From: a virus
DNA length: 42,346 nt
Strand: one strand, 5' to 3'
Virus record (IMG/VR): IMGVR_UViG_3300007734_000690
Coordinates: 1 to 42,346 of that record
Shown: positions 2,578-38,184 of the stretch, piece by piece
Layout: each line of letters starts with the position of its first letter
Numbering within the stretch: position 1 is the stretch's first letter
Translations under genes and position numbers: made by a program
Notes under the pieces: model-generated
What the model saw: the letters and a program-made list of their open reading frames with translations, nothing else
Databases searched by the model: none
Told to the model about the DNA's origin: nothing

Positions 2578-2621
2578 GCGGTCGTAGCTCAGTTGGATAG
2601 AGCATCAGCCTTCGAAGCTGA
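2578..2621 (+). other. attP: Attachment-site candidate: 5' half of a tRNA-Arg(UCG) gene
   Basis: The sequence folds as the 5' acceptor strand (GCGGTCG), a D arm (GCTC...GAGC) and a complete anticodon arm (TCAGC-CTTCGAA-GCTGA, anticodon UCG), then breaks off. No T arm, 3' acceptor strand or CCA follows; the next bases are the ribosome binding site and ATG of the lipoprotein gene. A tRNA half directly after an integrase gene is a classic phage attachment core. With the 5' half on the phage, integration would restore a full tRNA at the integrase end of the prophage. Here, between two prophage units, the site has attP form. Confidence 0.75.
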
Positions 2622-2634
2622 ATCAGGAGCGAAA

Positions 2635-3402
2635 ATGCGCGTATTTCTTGCCTGTGCCACGATCTGCGCCACGATCTTTGCCGGTTGCTCCAGCCCTCCT
2701 ACCACACCCACCCCCGCCCCCGTCGTCGTGAATCAACCGCCTCCAGTGACGGTCACGCCGCCCGTGGTGACACCGCCTGTCGTGGTGACGCCTCCCGCGC
2801 CGACGCCCACCACAACATTTCCGCCGAACGATCCGCGGTTTGATCTGACGTTCTATCGGCAGTTGGTGCATAACGCCTTCGAAGGCCCGGTCTATGCCCT
2901 GAGTCGGTTTTCACAAGCACCACGTATCTACCTGCGCACGATCGATGAGGATGGCAAAGCGATCGACACGCGGATGCTCGATGACACCGCCCGCGCACTG
3001 GAAGAATCGGCCGGCGAGATGACCGGCAAATTCGGGTTGGCCGGACTGGAGCGCGGCACCGGCTCACACTTGCGTGAGCGCGGATGGCTAACCGTGCGCT
3101 GGCTCCCGCAAGCCCTCAATGATCGTCGTCTCTGCGGGCAGGCGAACGTGGGCGTCGAGGGCGGCTCGCTTGATCTCTTTCCCTACCAAGCGAATTGCGG
3201 CTGTGAACGCTACGGCATGGCGCCGCGGATCGTGCGCCATGAGCTGGGCCACGCGCTTGGATTCTGGCATACCGACCGCGGGGATGATCTGATGTACGGC
3301 CAGGCATGGGACATCAAATTCTGCAACGCCGGGATGAGCGCGCGCGAGAAGTATCACGCCGCCGTCGCCTACGATCAGCCTATCGGGACACGCGCGCCGT
3401 AG
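2635..3402 (+). CDS. Lipoprotein with matrixin-type zinc metalloprotease motif
   Basis: A 255-residue predicted secreted lipoprotein. A short signal peptide ends in the lipobox IFAGC (Cys18); a Pro/Thr/Val linker (20-65) follows, then a globular domain. The zinc-protease signature HELGHALGFWH (202-212) has all three His ligands and the catalytic Glu203, and a DDLMYG Met-turn candidate lies at 217-222, both typical of metzincins (M10-like). ATG 2635 is chosen because it has a GGAG site and starts the signal peptide; upstream in-frame codons read through the tRNA fragment. The gene lies at the attachment end, on the opposite strand to the virion genes, and ends one base before the convergent neighbour's stop. 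A lysogenic-conversion role is inferred; the substrate is unknown. Confidence 0.8.
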   Translation: MRVFLACATICATIFAGCSSPPTTPTPAPVVVNQPPPVTVTPPVVTPPVVVTPPAPTPTTTFPPNDPRFDLTFYRQLVHNAFEGPVYALSRFSQAPRIYLRTIDEDGKAIDTRMLDDTARALEESAGEMTGKFGLAGLERGTGSHLRERGWLTVRWLPQALNDRRLCGQANVGVEGGSLDLFPYQANCGCERYGMAPRIVRHELGHALGFWHTDRGDDLMYGQAWDIKFCNAGMSAREKYHAAVAYDQPIGTRAP

Positions 3403-18235: not shown

Positions 18236-18700
18236 CTAGTCCTTCTTCTCAGCGTGTCGTTCTAAATACGAGATGGCCTTTCGCATCGTCTCTACGTCGT
18301 GCTTTAGGCCACCGATTCCGGTGTTGCATCCGTTGCACAGAAGGCCACGCACCTTACCGGTGGCGTGGTCGTGATCCACATGCAGCCGATAGCCGTGCGC
18401 GTGTTTCTCTAATCCGCAGATGTGACACTTTCCACCCAACGCCGCGTATTGCTCTTCCGTCAGCCCGTACCGCTTAATGAGATTCGTAAGCGGCTTACTT
18501 GCGAGAATTCGCTCACGATTCCTCCAGTAGTAGGCGCGAGATTTTGCGCGGAGCGCCTCAGCATTCGATTCGTAGTACTTGCGATACGCCTCGCTTGCTG
18601 CCTTCGGGTCGCCAGCCACGCGCGCTCGTCGCCATTCGCGCTCGTACCGCTTTCTCGCTTCAAGTTGTTCCGCCGTCGCCGTTTTTCGATTCAGAGGCAT
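18236..18700 (-). CDS. HNH endonuclease, recombination endonuclease VII type
   Basis: A 154-residue nuclease. The C-terminal half has the Endo VII zinc/HNH core: C92-x2-C95, VDHDH 108-112, then VRGLLCNGCN with C122-x2-C125. The N-terminal half is a long basic helix that would hold DNA. Freestanding nucleases of this type inserted between virion genes are usually homing endonucleases. It lies exactly between the decoration gene and the 247-aa gene. Its ribosome binding site is partly buried in a strong hairpin (18709-18746). A similar nuclease occurs at 26863-27267. Confidence 0.85.
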   Translation of the reverse strand: MPLNRKTATAEQLEARKRYEREWRRARVAGDPKAASEAYRKYYESNAEALRAKSRAYYWRNRERILASKPLTNLIKRYGLTEEQYAALGGKCHICGLEKHAHGYRLHVDHDHATGKVRGLLCNGCNTGIGGLKHDVETMRKAISYLERHAEKKD

Positions 18701-18708
18701 TCACCACA

Positions 18709-18746
18709 CTCCAGAGTTGATGGCGATATTTTACCATCGACTCTGG
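18709..18746 (-). promoter_or_regulatory. Stem-loop covering the ribosome binding site of the HNH gene
   Basis: Arms 18711-18723 and 18734-18746 pair over 13 positions with a single mismatch around a 10-base AT-rich loop. On the minus-strand mRNA the 3' arm ends in the first two bases of the GGAG (18709-18712) that lies 8 bases before the HNH ATG. No U-run follows, so it is not a normal terminator. Hairpins that mask the ribosome site are known for T4 homing endonuclease genes; the same role is inferred. Confidence 0.65.
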
Positions 18747-18776
18747 CTATGTGGTTTATTTACTGCTGTTTAGTCG

Positions 18777-19505
18777 CTATTCCAAGAGCAACATAACAGC
18801 GTTATTCTTGCCGTCCACGCCCGTGCTCATCATCACGCCCACCACGGGCGTTTCTGAGGCCGCACCATCGACGACGACCGCGCCGGCCGCGGTGCCGGGG
18901 CATACCACCGCGAGGCCCACGCCAGGCGTGCCCTTCACCAGACACGCGGCCGGGCCGCGGGTCTGAATCCAGCCGTATTCCGTGGCTGCGATGATGTAGG
19001 GCGCATTGCCCACCACCGCGCCCGTGAGCGTGGTGATCGGGGTCTGGATGACGCCGTTGTAGGGATTGGCCTGCAAGTCCACGCGCGAAGACGTGGTGAG
19101 CGCCACCAGCAACGGCTGCGCCAGCGTCACCGTCAGCGACCCCGACGACGACGCCGCCGGGTTGCCGAGGATCGGGTAGGCATAGCCATTCCCAGGCGTG
19201 GTCGAGATGATCGCCCAGCCGCCGGCATACTGGCCTGCGGTGGCCGCCGTCGCGCCGAGCGTGACGGTGATCGAGGTATCGCCAATCGCCGCCGCGGTGG
19301 GGGTCAAGGCGAGATGGTTGGCGACTTGCGCGGGAGCCTGAATCATGTTGCCCGCGACGAGATCCACGGCGCCCGCACGGGCGTAGCGGAACACGCGACC
19401 ATCCGAGGTCACCATGCGTTCGCCGAAGTTGTGGTTGCGCGTCGAGGACGAGACGTAGAGCGCCTGTCCTGCGACTTCCGGATCAGCTCCGAGTTGTCCA
19501 GCCAT
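18777..19505 (-). CDS. Capsid decoration / head protein candidate (242 aa)
   Basis: A Gly/Ala/Thr/Val-rich beta protein with no charged motifs or enzyme residues, located directly after the major capsid gene and preceded by an excellent ribosome binding site (GGGAGG, 6 bases before ATG 19505), so it should be made in large amounts. That profile fits a capsid-stabilising (cement) protein. The N-terminus (residues 1-50) mentions GERMVTSDGRVFRYARAG, as in several uncharacterised head proteins. Confidence 0.65.
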   Translation of the reverse strand: MAGQLGADPEVAGQALYVSSSTRNHNFGERMVTSDGRVFRYARAGAVDLVAGNMIQAPAQVANHLALTPTAAAIGDTSITVTLGATAATAGQYAGGWAIISTTPGNGYAYPILGNPAASSSGSLTVTLAQPLLVALTTSSRVDLQANPYNGVIQTPITTLTGAVVGNAPYIIAATEYGWIQTRGPAACLVKGTPGVGLAVVCPGTAAGAVVVDGAASETPVVGVMMSTGVDGKNNAVMLLLE

Positions 19506-21561: not shown

Positions 21562-21616
21562 CAAACAAAAAGGGCCGTGCAATCCGCGCTTGGGGAAGCG
21601 CAAATCACACGGCCCT
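21562..21616 (-). terminator. Intrinsic-terminator-like hairpin upstream of scaffold gene
   Basis: On the minus strand AGGGCCGTG (21608-21616) pairs with CACGGCCCT (21571-21579), with a nested GCGCTT/AAGCGC stem, followed by TTTTT and T-rich bases (21562-21571). It ends transcripts arriving from the portal operon, but it also lies downstream of the promoter at 21731-21772 and 56 bases before the scaffold ATG, so scaffold and capsid expression must read through it. Confidence 0.7.
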
Positions 21617-21730
21617 AATCCGTATGTCCCTGTTGTCCGGTAGCCTGCTCAGGGAACAGTCGTCACCGCGGGAGCTACCCGCGATCGAGCTAGCCGGTCA
21701 AACCGTGTACCGAGTTACCCCGGTACCTAT
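21617..21730 (-). other. Structured leader between head promoter and terminator
   Basis: No gene fits here. Several perfect short dyads follow one another: GTACCG/CGGTAC (21707-21712 with 21721-21726), CGCGGG/CCCGCG (21667-21672 with 21678-21683), and CCCTG/CAGGG (21628-21632 with 21650-21654). As RNA this would be a chain of hairpins leading to the terminator. It may be a put- or nut-like antitermination region or an attenuator; this is inference. Confidence 0.5.
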
Positions 21731-21772
21731 CTAGGTGTATACCTAGTATGCAATCCGTAAAAACTACCGCAA
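21731..21772 (-). promoter_or_regulatory. Head-operon promoter with dyad at the start site
   Basis: The minus strand reads TTGCGG (21767-21772), 16 bases, then CATACT (21745-21750), immediately followed by the 16-base dyad CTAGGTGTATACCTAG (plus strand 21731-21746). About three quarters of the 49 bases 21731-21779 match 27766-27814, which precede the other head operon. Two matching elements upstream of structural operons suggest common late control; the dyad may be an operator or a 5' RNA hairpin. Confidence 0.6.
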
Positions 21773-21774
21773 GC

Positions 21775-34597: not shown

Positions 34598-34920
34598 CGC
34601 GTGAACCTATAGCGTTGGCAGACGCCCCACCGATTCGACCGGCTCACCAATTCCCGCTCTCGCACCACATCCCCAGACTTGGCCAGGTTGGTTAGCGCCG
34701 AGTTCGTCTGTTGACCATCAAAACCTGTCGCCGCTTTCACGTCCGCGATGGTGAACCAGTCCTGAAACTTCGGATCAGTTCTCAACGCTCTGACTCTTGC
34801 CGTGGTCATCCCGTAGTGACGAGAGACAGGCTGAGGATCGACTGGGGCATGTTTCGGGGCGAAGAGGAAACGCCCCCATGCGCCTTGATCGGTGCCGTCG
34901 AAAATCACGCGGTAGGTCAT
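34594..34920 (-). CDS. Winged-helix hypothetical protein (108 aa)
   Basis: The C-terminal half has a winged-helix arrangement (WFTIADVKAATGFDGQQTNS; ALTNLAKSGDVVRERELVSR; WGVCQRYRFT). The N-terminal half carries a second short HTH-like region (RHYGMTTARVRALRTD). It is linked by ATGA overlaps to the Thg1-like gene and the next winged-helix gene, so the two regulators are co-expressed with it. Confidence 0.6.
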   Translation of the reverse strand: MTYRVIFDGTDQGAWGRFLFAPKHAPVDPQPVSRHYGMTTARVRALRTDPKFQDWFTIADVKAATGFDGQQTNSALTNLAKSGDVVRERELVSRSNRWGVCQRYRFTR

Positions 34921-35633
34921 GCCGGAATCCTTGGAATCCGCGAGGACAGATACGCACGATCCGCCGTGAACACCGGGATCTCACGATCAACGCGCCATGC
35001 TTCGTTGTCATAGATCGCGCACCGTCCGCGCTTTTCTTCGGCGGGTCGGTCGTTCCAGTTGATGCCCTTTTGAAGCATCAACATGTCCTGCATCCCGCTG
35101 TTATTGACGCCGTGTAATTGCTTCGCGGAGAAGTGCGCTTGCGCCAGTCCGCTGATGCTGTTGCGCGTGGCGTCCTGTTGCCGCCAGATGAAGTAGTTTT
35201 CGACTTCGACCGGATCGGGGATTGTGAATACCCTCGCATCGAAGTGAGCGGGACTCGCGCCCTGACTTCCGCCGTAGTTGGCGTTGAAAGCTGCCGTTGC
35301 CACAGATGCGGCGACAGATGCGATCTTCTGCACGTTCCCATCGAACCAGGCGCACGTTTGAATCGTGGCGAAGTCCGTCAGTAGCACGGAGATTTCATCG
35401 CTCTGCACGTAGGCCAGCGCGACCCCTTGTGCCTCTTTGACAAGCGCGAGCATGGCCGCATCCATCGCCAGCACCAGATTCATGTCGTAGGGCTTTTGGC
35501 AGTGGCGCGTGAACGTGTGGAACGCCTTCCCATCGCACCGGATGATCGTGTAGGTGCGACGAGGCAGCGAGAACCGCGCACGGTTCTCATACTGGCCCTT
35601 CATCCGATCGCCAAGTGAATCGCCTTTAGTCAT
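34917..35633 (-). CDS. Thg1-like 3'-5' nucleotidyltransferase
   Basis: A 238-residue protein of the tRNA(His) guanylyltransferase superfamily. Motifs are clear: RCDGKAFHTFTR (32-43; Asp34 metal ligand), YVQSDEISVLL (75-85; Asp79 and Glu80), FDARVFTIP (131-139) and NYFIWRQQDATRNSI (146-160). Family members add nucleotides to the 5' end of tRNA in the reverse direction; bacterial and phage Thg1-like proteins repair truncated tRNA 5' ends using a template. It would act on host or phage tRNA in the cytoplasm during early infection. No tRNA gene other than the half at the attachment site is in the window. Confidence 0.88.
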   Translation of the reverse strand: MTKGDSLGDRMKGQYENRARFSLPRRTYTIIRCDGKAFHTFTRHCQKPYDMNLVLAMDAAMLALVKEAQGVALAYVQSDEISVLLTDFATIQTCAWFDGNVQKIASVAASVATAAFNANYGGSQGASPAHFDARVFTIPDPVEVENYFIWRQQDATRNSISGLAQAHFSAKQLHGVNNSGMQDMLMLQKGINWNDRPAEEKRGRCAIYDNEAWRVDREIPVFTADRAYLSSRIPRIPA

Positions 35634-35674: not shown

Positions 35675-36213
35675 CACTTCTCCGCTTCCCGCGAATACTT
35701 CGCCGTGCGTTGACGATCCGCGATCAACTTCGGATTCGTCGGGCGGCATTTGCAACGCGAGAAATAGCTCTTGCGTTCGACTTCGATCACGCGCCGTTCG
35801 ATCTTGTCGTGCTGACCAACCGCCACCGGCATCGTGTAAGGAGGCTTCACGGCGCGGACTTCTTCCACCCATCCGGTATCGCGGCACATCGAGCAGTAGC
35901 GCCACAGGATCGGATCGTTGTCTTCGACCGGCGCGACTTCACCCGCGAGATAATGTTTCGCGGTCAACGTGCCTTCCGGCAGCGCGGGCACTTCGGGCCG
36001 GAACCGATCCGCATACGTGCGAATCCTGGCAACGGTCGGCATGAACGCTTCGCCCTGAATCGCGGCGTCGACGGCCTTCACCAGCACGTCATCGGGAATG
36101 TCCGCAAGTTCGTCTTTGTAGGCGCGGGCCGTCTCTTCGGAAGGCACGGCGCGATAGGCGGCGAACGCCTTTTTGAGGGCAGCGATGCGCGGCGGATCAA
36201 TCACGCCAATCAT
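35674..36213 (-). CDS. Helicase-loader-like / replication accessory protein (179 aa)
   Basis: The N-terminal half is helical (KKAFAAYRAVPSEETARAYK; VLVKAVDAAIQGEAFMPTVA, then RIRTYADR), matching the small helical replisome-loader type (FxPTxxEI-like motif) found next to phage initiators. The C-terminal half has a zinc site from CSMCRDTGW and RCKC. It is coupled to the initiator-like gene by an ATGA overlap. A loader of host DnaB is the most likely role; this is inference from context. Confidence 0.6.
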   Translation of the reverse strand: MIGVIDPPRIAALKKAFAAYRAVPSEETARAYKDELADIPDDVLVKAVDAAIQGEAFMPTVARIRTYADRFRPEVPALPEGTLTAKHYLAGEVAPVEDNDPILWRYCSMCRDTGWVEEVRAVKPPYTMPVAVGQHDKIERRVIEVERKSYFSRCKCRPTNPKLIADRQRTAKYSREAEK

Positions 36214-37037
36214 CGGAACGCCTCATCGATCGCGTTGGCGCCTTGGGTGGCTTTCAGCGCACCAGTCGAGGGCCGTGAGCCGCCGTGCGTCTCCGTCCAC
36301 CGATTACGCCAGAAGTCGAAATGCGAGCCGTCCGGCACGATCCGATCCGACCACTGGCGGCGGATGTCGAGCGCCCATTCCTTGACTTGCCGGAGCTTGA
36401 GCGCGTGATCGTCACCGGGCACCTTGCCCGCAAACTCCAGTGCCTGCGCCTCATCGAAACAGACCCAATCACAGAACCCGCTCAGGTGCTGACCGTGGCG
36501 ACGATCCCACTTCACGTTTTCATTTCGAGCGATGAGCGTTGGCGTGGTGGGGGCCAGCGCCGAAGGCGCGCCTTCGTTCCCTTCCCTTCCCTTCCCTTCC
36601 TGAAACTCCTTCCCTTCCCTTCCATTCCTATGGGGACTCGACGGGTTCTCGACGGGAAGGATGACAACCTTTTCAGGGCTAGCCGTTTTCAGGTGTGGTT
36701 TTTCCCTGTCTTGACCATCGGCGGGAAGGATGGACGCGGCCTCTTTCGGGTGCGGCTTCTGATGCTTCTGAAACCCCGAAACCTGGATGATGGCCTGTCC
36801 GTTGGCCTCGTAGCGGCGGATCAACCCGCCGTCTACGAGGGTCCAGAGGAGCGCGTCCAGATCGCACTCGTCCTCTGGGAGTAACCGCATCTTGAGCGTT
36901 CTGGGGCGATCCTCGACACGCCCGTCACGGTCACATTCCGTGAACAGGCCGACGAATAGGAGCCGGGCCAGAGGCTCTAACGCGGTGACATCTTCTGACG
37001 TGAAAAACTGAGGCTTGATCGTCCGGATGCGGGCCAT
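36210..37037 (-). CDS. Phage replication initiator / replisome organiser-like protein (275 aa)
   Basis: From ATG 37037: MARIRTIKPQFFTSEDVTAL followed by LARLLFVGLFTECDRDGRVE, the standard N-terminal winged-helix domain of phage replication proteins (origin binding). A linker (about 130-170) rich in Gly/Glu/Lys is encoded by a TTCCC pentanucleotide repeat. The C-terminal domain (about 180-270) contains WALDIRRQWSDRIVP and FDFWRNRWTE, a DnaD/loader-contact type helical region. It precedes the helicase-loader-like gene. It would bind the phage origin and recruit the loader. Confidence 0.8.
   Translation of the reverse strand: MARIRTIKPQFFTSEDVTALEPLARLLFVGLFTECDRDGRVEDRPRTLKMRLLPEDECDLDALLWTLVDGGLIRRYEANGQAIIQVSGFQKHQKPHPKEAASILPADGQDREKPHLKTASPEKVVILPVENPSSPHRNGREGKEFQEGKGREGNEGAPSALAPTTPTLIARNENVKWDRRHGQHLSGFCDWVCFDEAQALEFAGKVPGDDHALKLRQVKEWALDIRRQWSDRIVPDGSHFDFWRNRWTETHGGSRPSTGALKATQGANAIDEAFR
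36577..36623. repeat. Pentanucleotide TTCCC microsatellite in the initiator gene
   Basis: TTCCC is repeated four times plus a partial unit at 36577-36600, and again about three times at 36608-36623, in the linker coding region. Five is not a multiple of three, so slippage would shift the reading frame after the N-terminal domain. Confidence 0.75.
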
Positions 37038-37186
37038 TAGACAGACCCCACGGACGAATAGATAGAATACGAGCGGCGGGCAACGAAGATCATCGCAGCT
37101 ACCTCTGCTTTGGTTGACGGGAACGCGGGCGCTGCTAACGTCCGTGTTCTGCTCGCCAACATACCATACGCCGCAAGTGTTTTCAT
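37037..37186 (-). CDS. Small ORF (49 aa) between structured RNA and initiator
   Basis: ATG 37186 to TAA 37037, whose last base is the first base of the initiator ATG (TAATG). The peptide (MKTLAAYGMLASRTRTLAAP; STKAEVAAMIFVARRSYSIY) is basic and Ala-rich. There is no visible Shine-Dalgarno. It could be a leader peptide that couples the RNA element to initiator translation. Confidence 0.35.
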   Translation of the reverse strand: MKTLAAYGMLASRTRTLAAPAFPSTKAEVAAMIFVARRSYSIYSSVGSV

Positions 37187-37198
37187 AGTGAAATCTGC

Positions 37199-37456
37199 TT
37201 AAAAACTTGCACCGAAGTAGCCCGGCTCGGTGCCACACCGTTCAGCCGCCAGGTAGGGCGGCTAACTTCGACTAGCGCGAGGTCTTCGCCCTCACCCGTT
37301 AATGGATTCGGCCCTCGCGCCAGTCAAACTCCTTACGTTCTCAACGCCCGAGAGCTACACACTCCCCACCGACCCCCAAAGCCTTAGAAGCTTCTACATC
37401 GGTGCCGTGCCTTCAGTAACTGCCTCCCGGCTTGGCTCGGAGGCGTTGAGAAACTT
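37199..37456 (-). ncRNA. Candidate structured noncoding RNA
   Basis: About 260 bases with no credible reading frame but many helices. An 11-bp outer pair (37338-37348 with 37442-37452), a 12-base palindrome TAGAAGCTTCTA (37385-37396), a 13-bp stem with one G-U on the minus-strand RNA (37270-37282 with 37313-37325), a 7-bp hairpin (37244-37250/37257-37263), and a last 7-bp hairpin (37209-37215/37227-37233) followed on the minus strand by a run of five Ts, as in an intrinsic terminator. GCCTCC/GGAGGC (37422-37427 with 37439-37444) can compete with the outer pair, so alternative folds are possible. It separates the 111-aa gene from the replication initiator. Origin of replication is the alternative. 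Confidence 0.55.
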
Positions 37457-37792
37457 CTAGCGGCTCAGCCGCATTTCTTCATCCAGCGATCGCAGATACG
37501 ACTTACAACTGCGGATCATCTCCACCACCAGGGCCGCGGTATCCTTCGCTTCTCGCGCCCGTTGATACTGGGGCGTCACTTCCGCTCGAATCCGCGCCCG
37601 GTTCGCCGCTTCGTCGCCCTGTAAGCACCCGAGCAGCACCAGCTTGTATTCGTGGTCTGCGGCCCGCTGTTCGTCGTTCACGTTCCCCATGAGGGCTGTG
37701 AGCGTCACGAGGCTTTCCCGCGCCATGTCGGGCGTGAGGGCGCCGTCGCGGAGCTTGGACTGGATTTCCTTGATGCGCTCACGCACACTCAC
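37457..37792 (-). CDS. Hypothetical helical protein (111 aa)
   Basis: An all-helical protein (RERIKEIQSKLRDGALTPDM; EVTPQYQRAREAKDTAALVV; MIRSCKSYLRSLDEEMRLSR). The start GTG 37792 overlaps the HNH stop by four bases. No family is recognised; it lies next to recombination genes and directly upstream of the structured RNA. Confidence 0.6.
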   Translation of the reverse strand: MSVRERIKEIQSKLRDGALTPDMARESLVTLTALMGNVNDEQRAADHEYKLVLLGCLQGDEAANRARIRAEVTPQYQRAREAKDTAALVVEMIRSCKSYLRSLDEEMRLSR

Positions 37793-38184
37793 CGCCAGCC
37801 CTCGACCTTCCAGCCGGCATCGGTGCCGCGCTCGAGCTTCACGCCATTGAGGACACCAATCGCGCTCCGTTGATCCGCATTCCCCGAGAGCCGAATCTCC
37901 CCGTTATGCACCGCGTGGTGGCACTTCACGCACAAGCTCAGGACGTTGCCGGTGTCGTGATCGCCGCCCTTGGAGCGATACACCAAGTGGTGATGGTGGA
38001 CCGCTTGCAGCATCCCGATCCCGCCCACACGGGCTCGGCAGACGCGGCAGCAGTTGGAATCCCGCCGATCCACCTGGGCGTAGCATTCGCGCTCGGCCTT
38101 CTTCGCGTCGGCCACCTTCTTGGCCTTTTCCATCCAGCGCGGGGCCGGTTTGGGATTGGGCTTAAAGGACATGGGGCTCGGCAT
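37789..38184 (-). CDS. HNH endonuclease (131 aa)
   Basis: From ATG 38184: a basic N-terminus (PNPKPAPRWMEKAKKVADAK), then zinc/HNH elements CRVCRA, VHHHHLVYRSKGGDHD, TGNVLSLCVKCHHAVHNGEI. The HH...N...H order is the ββα-metal nuclease fold. It is unlike the Endo VII-type pair in the virion genes. In the recombination cluster it may process replication intermediates (as RusA/Rap replacements do) or be a homing enzyme. Confidence 0.8.
   Translation of the reverse strand: MPSPMSFKPNPKPAPRWMEKAKKVADAKKAERECYAQVDRRDSNCCRVCRARVGGIGMLQAVHHHHLVYRSKGGDHDTGNVLSLCVKCHHAVHNGEIRLSGNADQRSAIGVLNGVKLERGTDAGWKVEGWR

What the first reader, a model, noticed from the sequence alone, without database searches (positions are those of the whole stretch)
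37199..37456. Undescribed structured RNA candidate before the initiator gene
In an operon where genes otherwise overlap, 260 bases stay open and are filled with helices: a long-range 11-bp pair, a 13-bp stem, several hairpins and a terminal hairpin with a T-run. Competing pairings suggest a switch. It may be a trans-acting RNA, an attenuator for initiator expression or a structured origin. It matches no RNA family that I know.
Basis: partly seen in the sequence, partly recalled or inferred. Interest (0 to 1): 0.72.

Follow-up and report, generated by a model that had tools for sequence, protein, structure and literature searches.

The report
Conserved structured RNA before phage initiator
In the gap before a soil-type phage's DNA-replication starter gene lies a folded RNA whose main hairpin is kept, with matching base changes on both sides, in two related uncultivated phages, so it is a real and unnamed RNA element that most likely controls that gene.

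Summary
37199-37456, read on the minus (operon) strand, is non-coding and folds far better than shuffled sequence (z -4.2). It contains the long-range helix, a 16-bp hairpin and a terminator-like 3' hairpin, and it matches no Rfam family. A covariance model built from the window alone has one clear relative in 755 kb: L011, E 0.0021, in the gap just after the orthologous 111-aa gene. It also weakly finds L010, in the gap directly before that phage's initiator-type gene. The three hairpins share the strand GGCGAAGAC beside a 14-16-bp stem in which 45 of 45 cells pair (one bulged base in L010), 7 pairs change on both sides, and wobbles are G-U on the operon strand. The rest of the RNA varies, and domain order differs in L010. 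In the window the order is RNA, terminator-like hairpin, 49-codon ORF, initiator (TAATG overlap). The best reading is a structured leader or attenuator of the initiator, possibly also released as a small RNA. Covariation is shown; function is inferred. A structured origin is less likely. Only three members are known, and no transcript has been observed.

The parts
37457..37792 (-). Upstream 111-aa gene of unknown function; its orthologues mark the locus in related phages
37338..37452 (-). 5' multibranched domain closed by the long-range 11-bp helix (37442-37452 with 37338-37348)
   Evidence: no relative found with its model
37267..37328 (-). Hairpin B, the conserved core: 16-bp stem (arms 37313-37328 and 37267-37282), short inner stem and apical loop
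   Evidence: covariation with L010 and L011
37282..37290 (-). Invariant strand GGCGAAGAC; GAAGA (37283-37287) is predicted as a bulge between outer and inner stem
   Evidence: identical in window, L010 and L011
37242..37265 (-). Hairpin C, 9 bp
37201..37233 (-). Terminator-like hairpin (8 bp including one G-U) followed by AAG and five T
   Evidence: alternative pairings of nearly equal energy
37037..37186 (-). Possible 49-codon ORF whose stop overlaps the initiator start (TAATG)
   Evidence: no homologue or ribosome-binding evidence
36210..37037 (-). Replication initiator gene (phrog_16167)
36580..36629 (-). Iteron-like GGGAAGG repeats inside the initiator gene, a likelier origin site
   Evidence: sequence; 106-base match at 80% identity in L002/L003

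Best explanation
It is a structured, non-coding RNA region transcribed with the early operon, forming the leader between the 111-aa gene and the replication initiator in a small group of uncultivated phages. Its conserved core is hairpin B with the invariant GGCGAAGAC strand. The most likely mechanism is control of initiator expression in cis: transcripts fold into the multibranched domain and hairpin B, then either stop at the weak terminator-like hairpin at 37201-37233 or read through it into the initiator, possibly via translation of the 49-codon ORF coupled to it by TAATG. A protein, another RNA or the state of folding would set the ratio. Stopped or processed transcripts would be a small RNA of about 260 bases. 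Shown: non-coding gap, excess folding, conserved and covarying hairpin B on the operon strand, position before initiator-type genes. Inferred: transcription through it, termination, the signal that hairpin B senses, and the role of the ORF.
For: Fold z -4.2; relatives' gaps also fold in excess, L010 z -5.3 and L011 z -3.1. A window-only covariance model finds L011 at E 0.0021 in 755 kb as best non-self hit, inside the syntenic gap, and L010 directly before its initiator-type gene. Correcting the stem register raised the L011 score from 13.5 to 18.4 bits. In the stem 45 of 45 cells pair, 7 pairs change on both sides, and 4 cells are G-U on the operon strand, which would be A-C on the other. Stems this strong occur at 0.05-0.25% of random sites. 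Terminator-like hairpin with near-equal alternatives. Order of parts resembles the IsrK locus and the P4 leader (PMC4825925).
Against: Only three members, aligned by hand around the motif. L010 is a weak model hit (11.2 bits). The terminator has a 3-base spacer before the T-run and is not found in L010; in L011 only a weak T-rich hairpin is seen. L010 has a promoter-like site between RNA and initiator, which does not fit simple attenuation. In L011 two genes lie between RNA and initiator. No transcript data. Domain order differs in L010.
Confidence: 0.45

Rival explanations
1. A trans-acting phage RNA of about 260 bases, released by processing behind the 111-aa stop codon and by the terminator, acting on host or phage RNAs or binding a protein. 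Its position before the initiator would only be where it is carried.
For: Compact RNA with a 3' hairpin and T-run; in L011 other genes separate it from the initiator; L010 has a promoter-like site behind it.
Against: No promoter-like site found before it in the window; no stretch of 12 or more bases complementary or identical elsewhere in the phage; always in the same gap between the 111-aa gene and an initiator-type gene.
Confidence: 0.28
2. A single-strand DNA element: a replication origin or priming hairpin used when the phage replicates.
For: Location next to the initiator; paired structure would also form in single-stranded DNA.
Against: G-U rather than A-C exceptions on the operon strand; no direct repeats in the region; iteron-like repeats that recur in relatives lie inside the initiator gene.
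Confidence: 0.12
3. No function as an RNA: GC-rich intergenic filler or a decayed insert in a place where genes come and go, with similarity of L010 and L011 by chance or plain descent.
For: Another gap of this genome folds even more strongly (21569-21774, z -6.8), as does a partly coding stretch at 18690-18960 (z -5.4). Most phages with the 111-aa gene lack the RNA there. Plain sequence comparison of the gaps is not significant.
Against: Seven double-sided changes without a broken pair are hard to get without selection on pairing; motif, stem and position coincide in two other phages.
Confidence: 0.15

Closest known systems
P4 CI RNA / immunity leader of P4-like satellite phages
   Same: Untranslated structured leader upstream of replication genes; premature transcription termination holds back replication genes (described in PMC4825925)
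   Different: No seqA/seqC-type complementary pair was found in the window; no Rfam match; different phage type; termination here untested
IsrK RNA of prophage Gifsy-1
   Same: Order of parts: structured RNA, terminator, small ORF (45 codons there, 49 here), downstream phage gene (PMC4825925)
   Different: Downstream gene is an anti-repressor there and an initiator here; no sequence relation tested or seen; trans pairing unknown here
Transcription attenuation of plasmid rep mRNAs (pIP501, pT181 type)
   Same: Alternative hairpins and a terminator in the leader of a replication initiator gene (own knowledge; literature leads)
   Different: Those need a counter-transcript from the opposite strand; no promoter-like site on either strand was found here
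Ornate phage-associated RNAs (GOLLD, ROOL) and HEARO
   Same: Large structured non-coding RNAs carried by phages or mobile elements
   Different: No match to any of 4227 Rfam families for the window, L010 or L011 gaps

Membership tests
Any Rfam 15 family | Score at or above the family's gathering threshold | tested here: not met
   no match over the element or its relatives; only chance-level matches at E up to 10
Conserved structured RNA (any) | Base pairs kept through changes on both sides in relatives | tested here: met
   Hairpin B only: 7 of 16 pairs with double-sided change, 45/45 cells paired, three sequences, hand alignment; not met for the 5' domain
Transcription attenuator | Terminator and mutually exclusive alternative pairing | tested here: inconclusive
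   Terminator-like hairpin with 3-base spacer; forced alternatives within 1-3 kcal/mol of the minimum; no termination assay; not conserved in L010
P4 CI-type leader | Antisense pairing of a processed RNA with flanking sequences in the leader | tested here: inconclusive
   GGCACCGA occurs twice and could pair with UUCGGUGC, but an 8-base repeat in 258 bases is expected about 0.5 times (arithmetic) and that pairing has probability near 0
Kink-turn (Kt-7 type) | Tandem G-A pairs, GA on both strands, next to a 3-base bulge | tested here: not met
   GGCGAAGA resembles the bulged Kt-7 strand (own knowledge), but the opposite strands GAGG-GCC, GUGG-CGC and GUGG-ACGCC do not offer the GA partner in register in all three (by inspection)
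Lambda-type boxB | GAAGA or GAAAA pentaloop closed by a 5-bp hairpin | tested here: not met
   GAAGA is predicted in a bulge or a longer loop, not in a 5-bp pentaloop hairpin
Iteron or structured origin at 37199-37456 | Direct repeats (iterons) in the element | tested here: not met
   No direct repeats in 36900-37800; GGGAAGG repeats lie inside the initiator gene instead

The most novel reading that the evidence does not exclude
A new family of phage RNA with an invariant GGCGAAGAC bulge strand that binds a phage or host protein (or another ligand) and couples that signal to the dose of the replication initiator, carried by phages whose initiators belong to different families.
Probability: 0.2. 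Interest if true: 0.7.

Novelty: new variant of a known kind. Interest (0 to 1): 0.5.

Why it matters
RNA leaders that set the dose of a replication initiator decide between lysogeny, lysis and copy number in the few phages and plasmids where they are known. This one belongs to uncultivated phages whose neighbouring gene has no match among isolate phages, is absent from Rfam, and gives a defined hairpin with a fixed 9-base strand that can be used to find more members and to test binding and attenuation directly.

Tried and rejected
Plain sequence search for the RNA: nothing meaningful in phages or plasmids or in related phage records. Gap-to-gap alignments are not significant. A first covariance model (R1) had its stems shifted by one or two positions through my counting error; it is superseded by R3. 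Model R2 for the 5' domain found no relative. Two DNA-pattern scans for the hairpin core returned only L011 plus chance hits, mostly in open frames. L001 and L003 also carry CGAAGAC in the gap before their initiator, and L001 folds with a long-range helix, but neither has the hairpin B stem, so they are not counted as members. The R3 hit in L058 lies in a coding frame; the L059 hits are weak and were left aside. Searches around initiators of phage and bacterial loci, and loci with the other initiator type, gave no further member. A search of 396 Acidobacteriota and 301 Chloroflexota genomes for the 111-aa protein gave one distant homologue in an Acidobacteriota genome, without the RNA. Kink-turn and boxB identity rejected (see membership test). 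No long antisense target inside the phage. A forced-pairing test used a wrong register for the terminator and is replaced.

Full report
Setting. The window is a whole IMG/VR virus record of 42346 bases. It is a temperate-type phage with integrase, terminase, major head protein, YqaJ exonuclease and ERF annealing protein. In the early operon on the minus strand the genes overlap by a few bases, except between the 111-aa gene (37457-37792) and the initiator (phrog_16167), whose ATG lies at 37037.

The observation. The 258 bases fold with z -4.2 on the operon strand. 2 of 140 sampled segments of the genome have a larger excess. The 3' end carries a hairpin followed by AAGUUUUU with alternatives of nearly equal energy. 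No Rfam family matches.

Conservation. Orthologues of the 111-aa gene were collected from viral contigs. In most of them another gene (HNH or other) follows directly, and there is no RNA at this place. The exceptions are two of the closest relatives, L010 (79% identical) and L011 (77%). A covariance model of the window's 3' part alone, with the correct stem register (R3), has L011 6507-6587 as its best hit apart from the window itself in 755 kb: 18.4 bits, E 0.0021. An earlier model with a shifted structure gave 13.5 bits at the same place, so correct pairing adds 5 bits. That hit lies in the gap just behind the 111-aa orthologue. R3 also hits L010 7280-7416 weakly. That place is the non-coding gap directly in front of the initiator-type gene of L010, and the gap folds with z -5.3; the L011 gap has z -3.1.

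The three hairpins. Stems, inner to outer, pair in all 45 cells (L010 with one bulged A). Seven pairs change on both sides between members. Four cells are G-U on the operon strand. The 3' strand before the stem reads GGCGAAGAC in all three. Its GAAGA forms a predicted bulge opposite no or few bases, between the outer stem and a short GC inner stem. Stems as strong as these are rare at random positions (0.05%, 0.075% and 0.25% of 4000 sites for window, L011 and L010). Other viral sites found by a close motif pattern have no comparable stem. I take this as good evidence that hairpin B is selected as a pairing structure of the transcript. The alignment of the three stems was made by hand from the shared motif, and the sample is three sequences.

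What is not conserved. The 5' domain closed by the long-range helix has no recognisable relative. L010 has a long-range-closed domain too, but behind hairpin B instead of before it. Hairpin C and the terminator are not found in L010. The element is therefore a variable structured leader around one fixed hairpin.

How it may work. In the window the order is RNA, terminator-like hairpin, ORF of 49 codons ending in TAATG with the initiator start, then initiator. This resembles the IsrK locus of Gifsy-1 in order of parts, and the principle of the P4 leader, where premature termination holds back replication genes (PMC4825925). I infer cis control of the initiator, with release of a small RNA as a possible by-product or partner. 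L010 has a promoter-like site (TTGACT-17-GATAGT) between RNA and initiator, and in L011 two genes separate the RNA from the initiator. Both weaken a pure attenuation model for those phages and keep the trans-acting reading alive.

Origin reading. GGGAAGG repeats inside the initiator gene (36580-36629) recur in L001 and lie within a 106-base match of 80% identity in L002/L003, as in lambda-type phages (own knowledge). No direct repeats lie in the RNA region. Together with the G-U polarity this makes a DNA origin element the less likely reading.

Verdict. The feature is real and belongs to a small, unnamed RNA group of a known kind (phage leader or regulatory RNA). Function is inferred. Confidence that hairpin B is a conserved RNA structure is about 0.8; in the cis-control mechanism, 0.45.

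Noticed in passing
window 21569-21774, - strand: A second, even more strongly folded non-coding gap (z -6.8) in the head-gene module, with several hairpins and a 21-bp GC-rich hairpin followed by TTTTTG; no Rfam family at gathering threshold.
   Followed up: partly
window 18690-18960, - strand: Folded stretch (z -5.4), partly coding, including a long hairpin at the boundary between two genes.
   Followed up: no
L062:11855-11995: Related phage: non-coding RNA-like stretch closed by a long (about 20-bp) helix and followed by GTTTTT (z -3.0).
   Followed up: no
window 34917-35633, - strand: Phage-encoded tRNA-His guanylyltransferase (Thg1) homologue in the early operon.
   Followed up: no
window 2578-2656, + strand: Weak tRNA match (30.3 bits, cut-off 29; not called by ARAGORN) directly behind the integrase gene, perhaps a tRNA-derived attachment site.
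   Followed up: no
L010 6345-6827, L012 6328 onward, L207 3327 onward: In several relatives HNH-type endonuclease genes sit directly behind the 111-aa gene, so this place looks like an insertion spot.
   Followed up: partly
L001:5788-6000: The gap before the closest initiator relative also folds into a multibranched structure closed by a 10-bp helix (z -2.5), without sequence relation to the window's RNA.
   Followed up: partly
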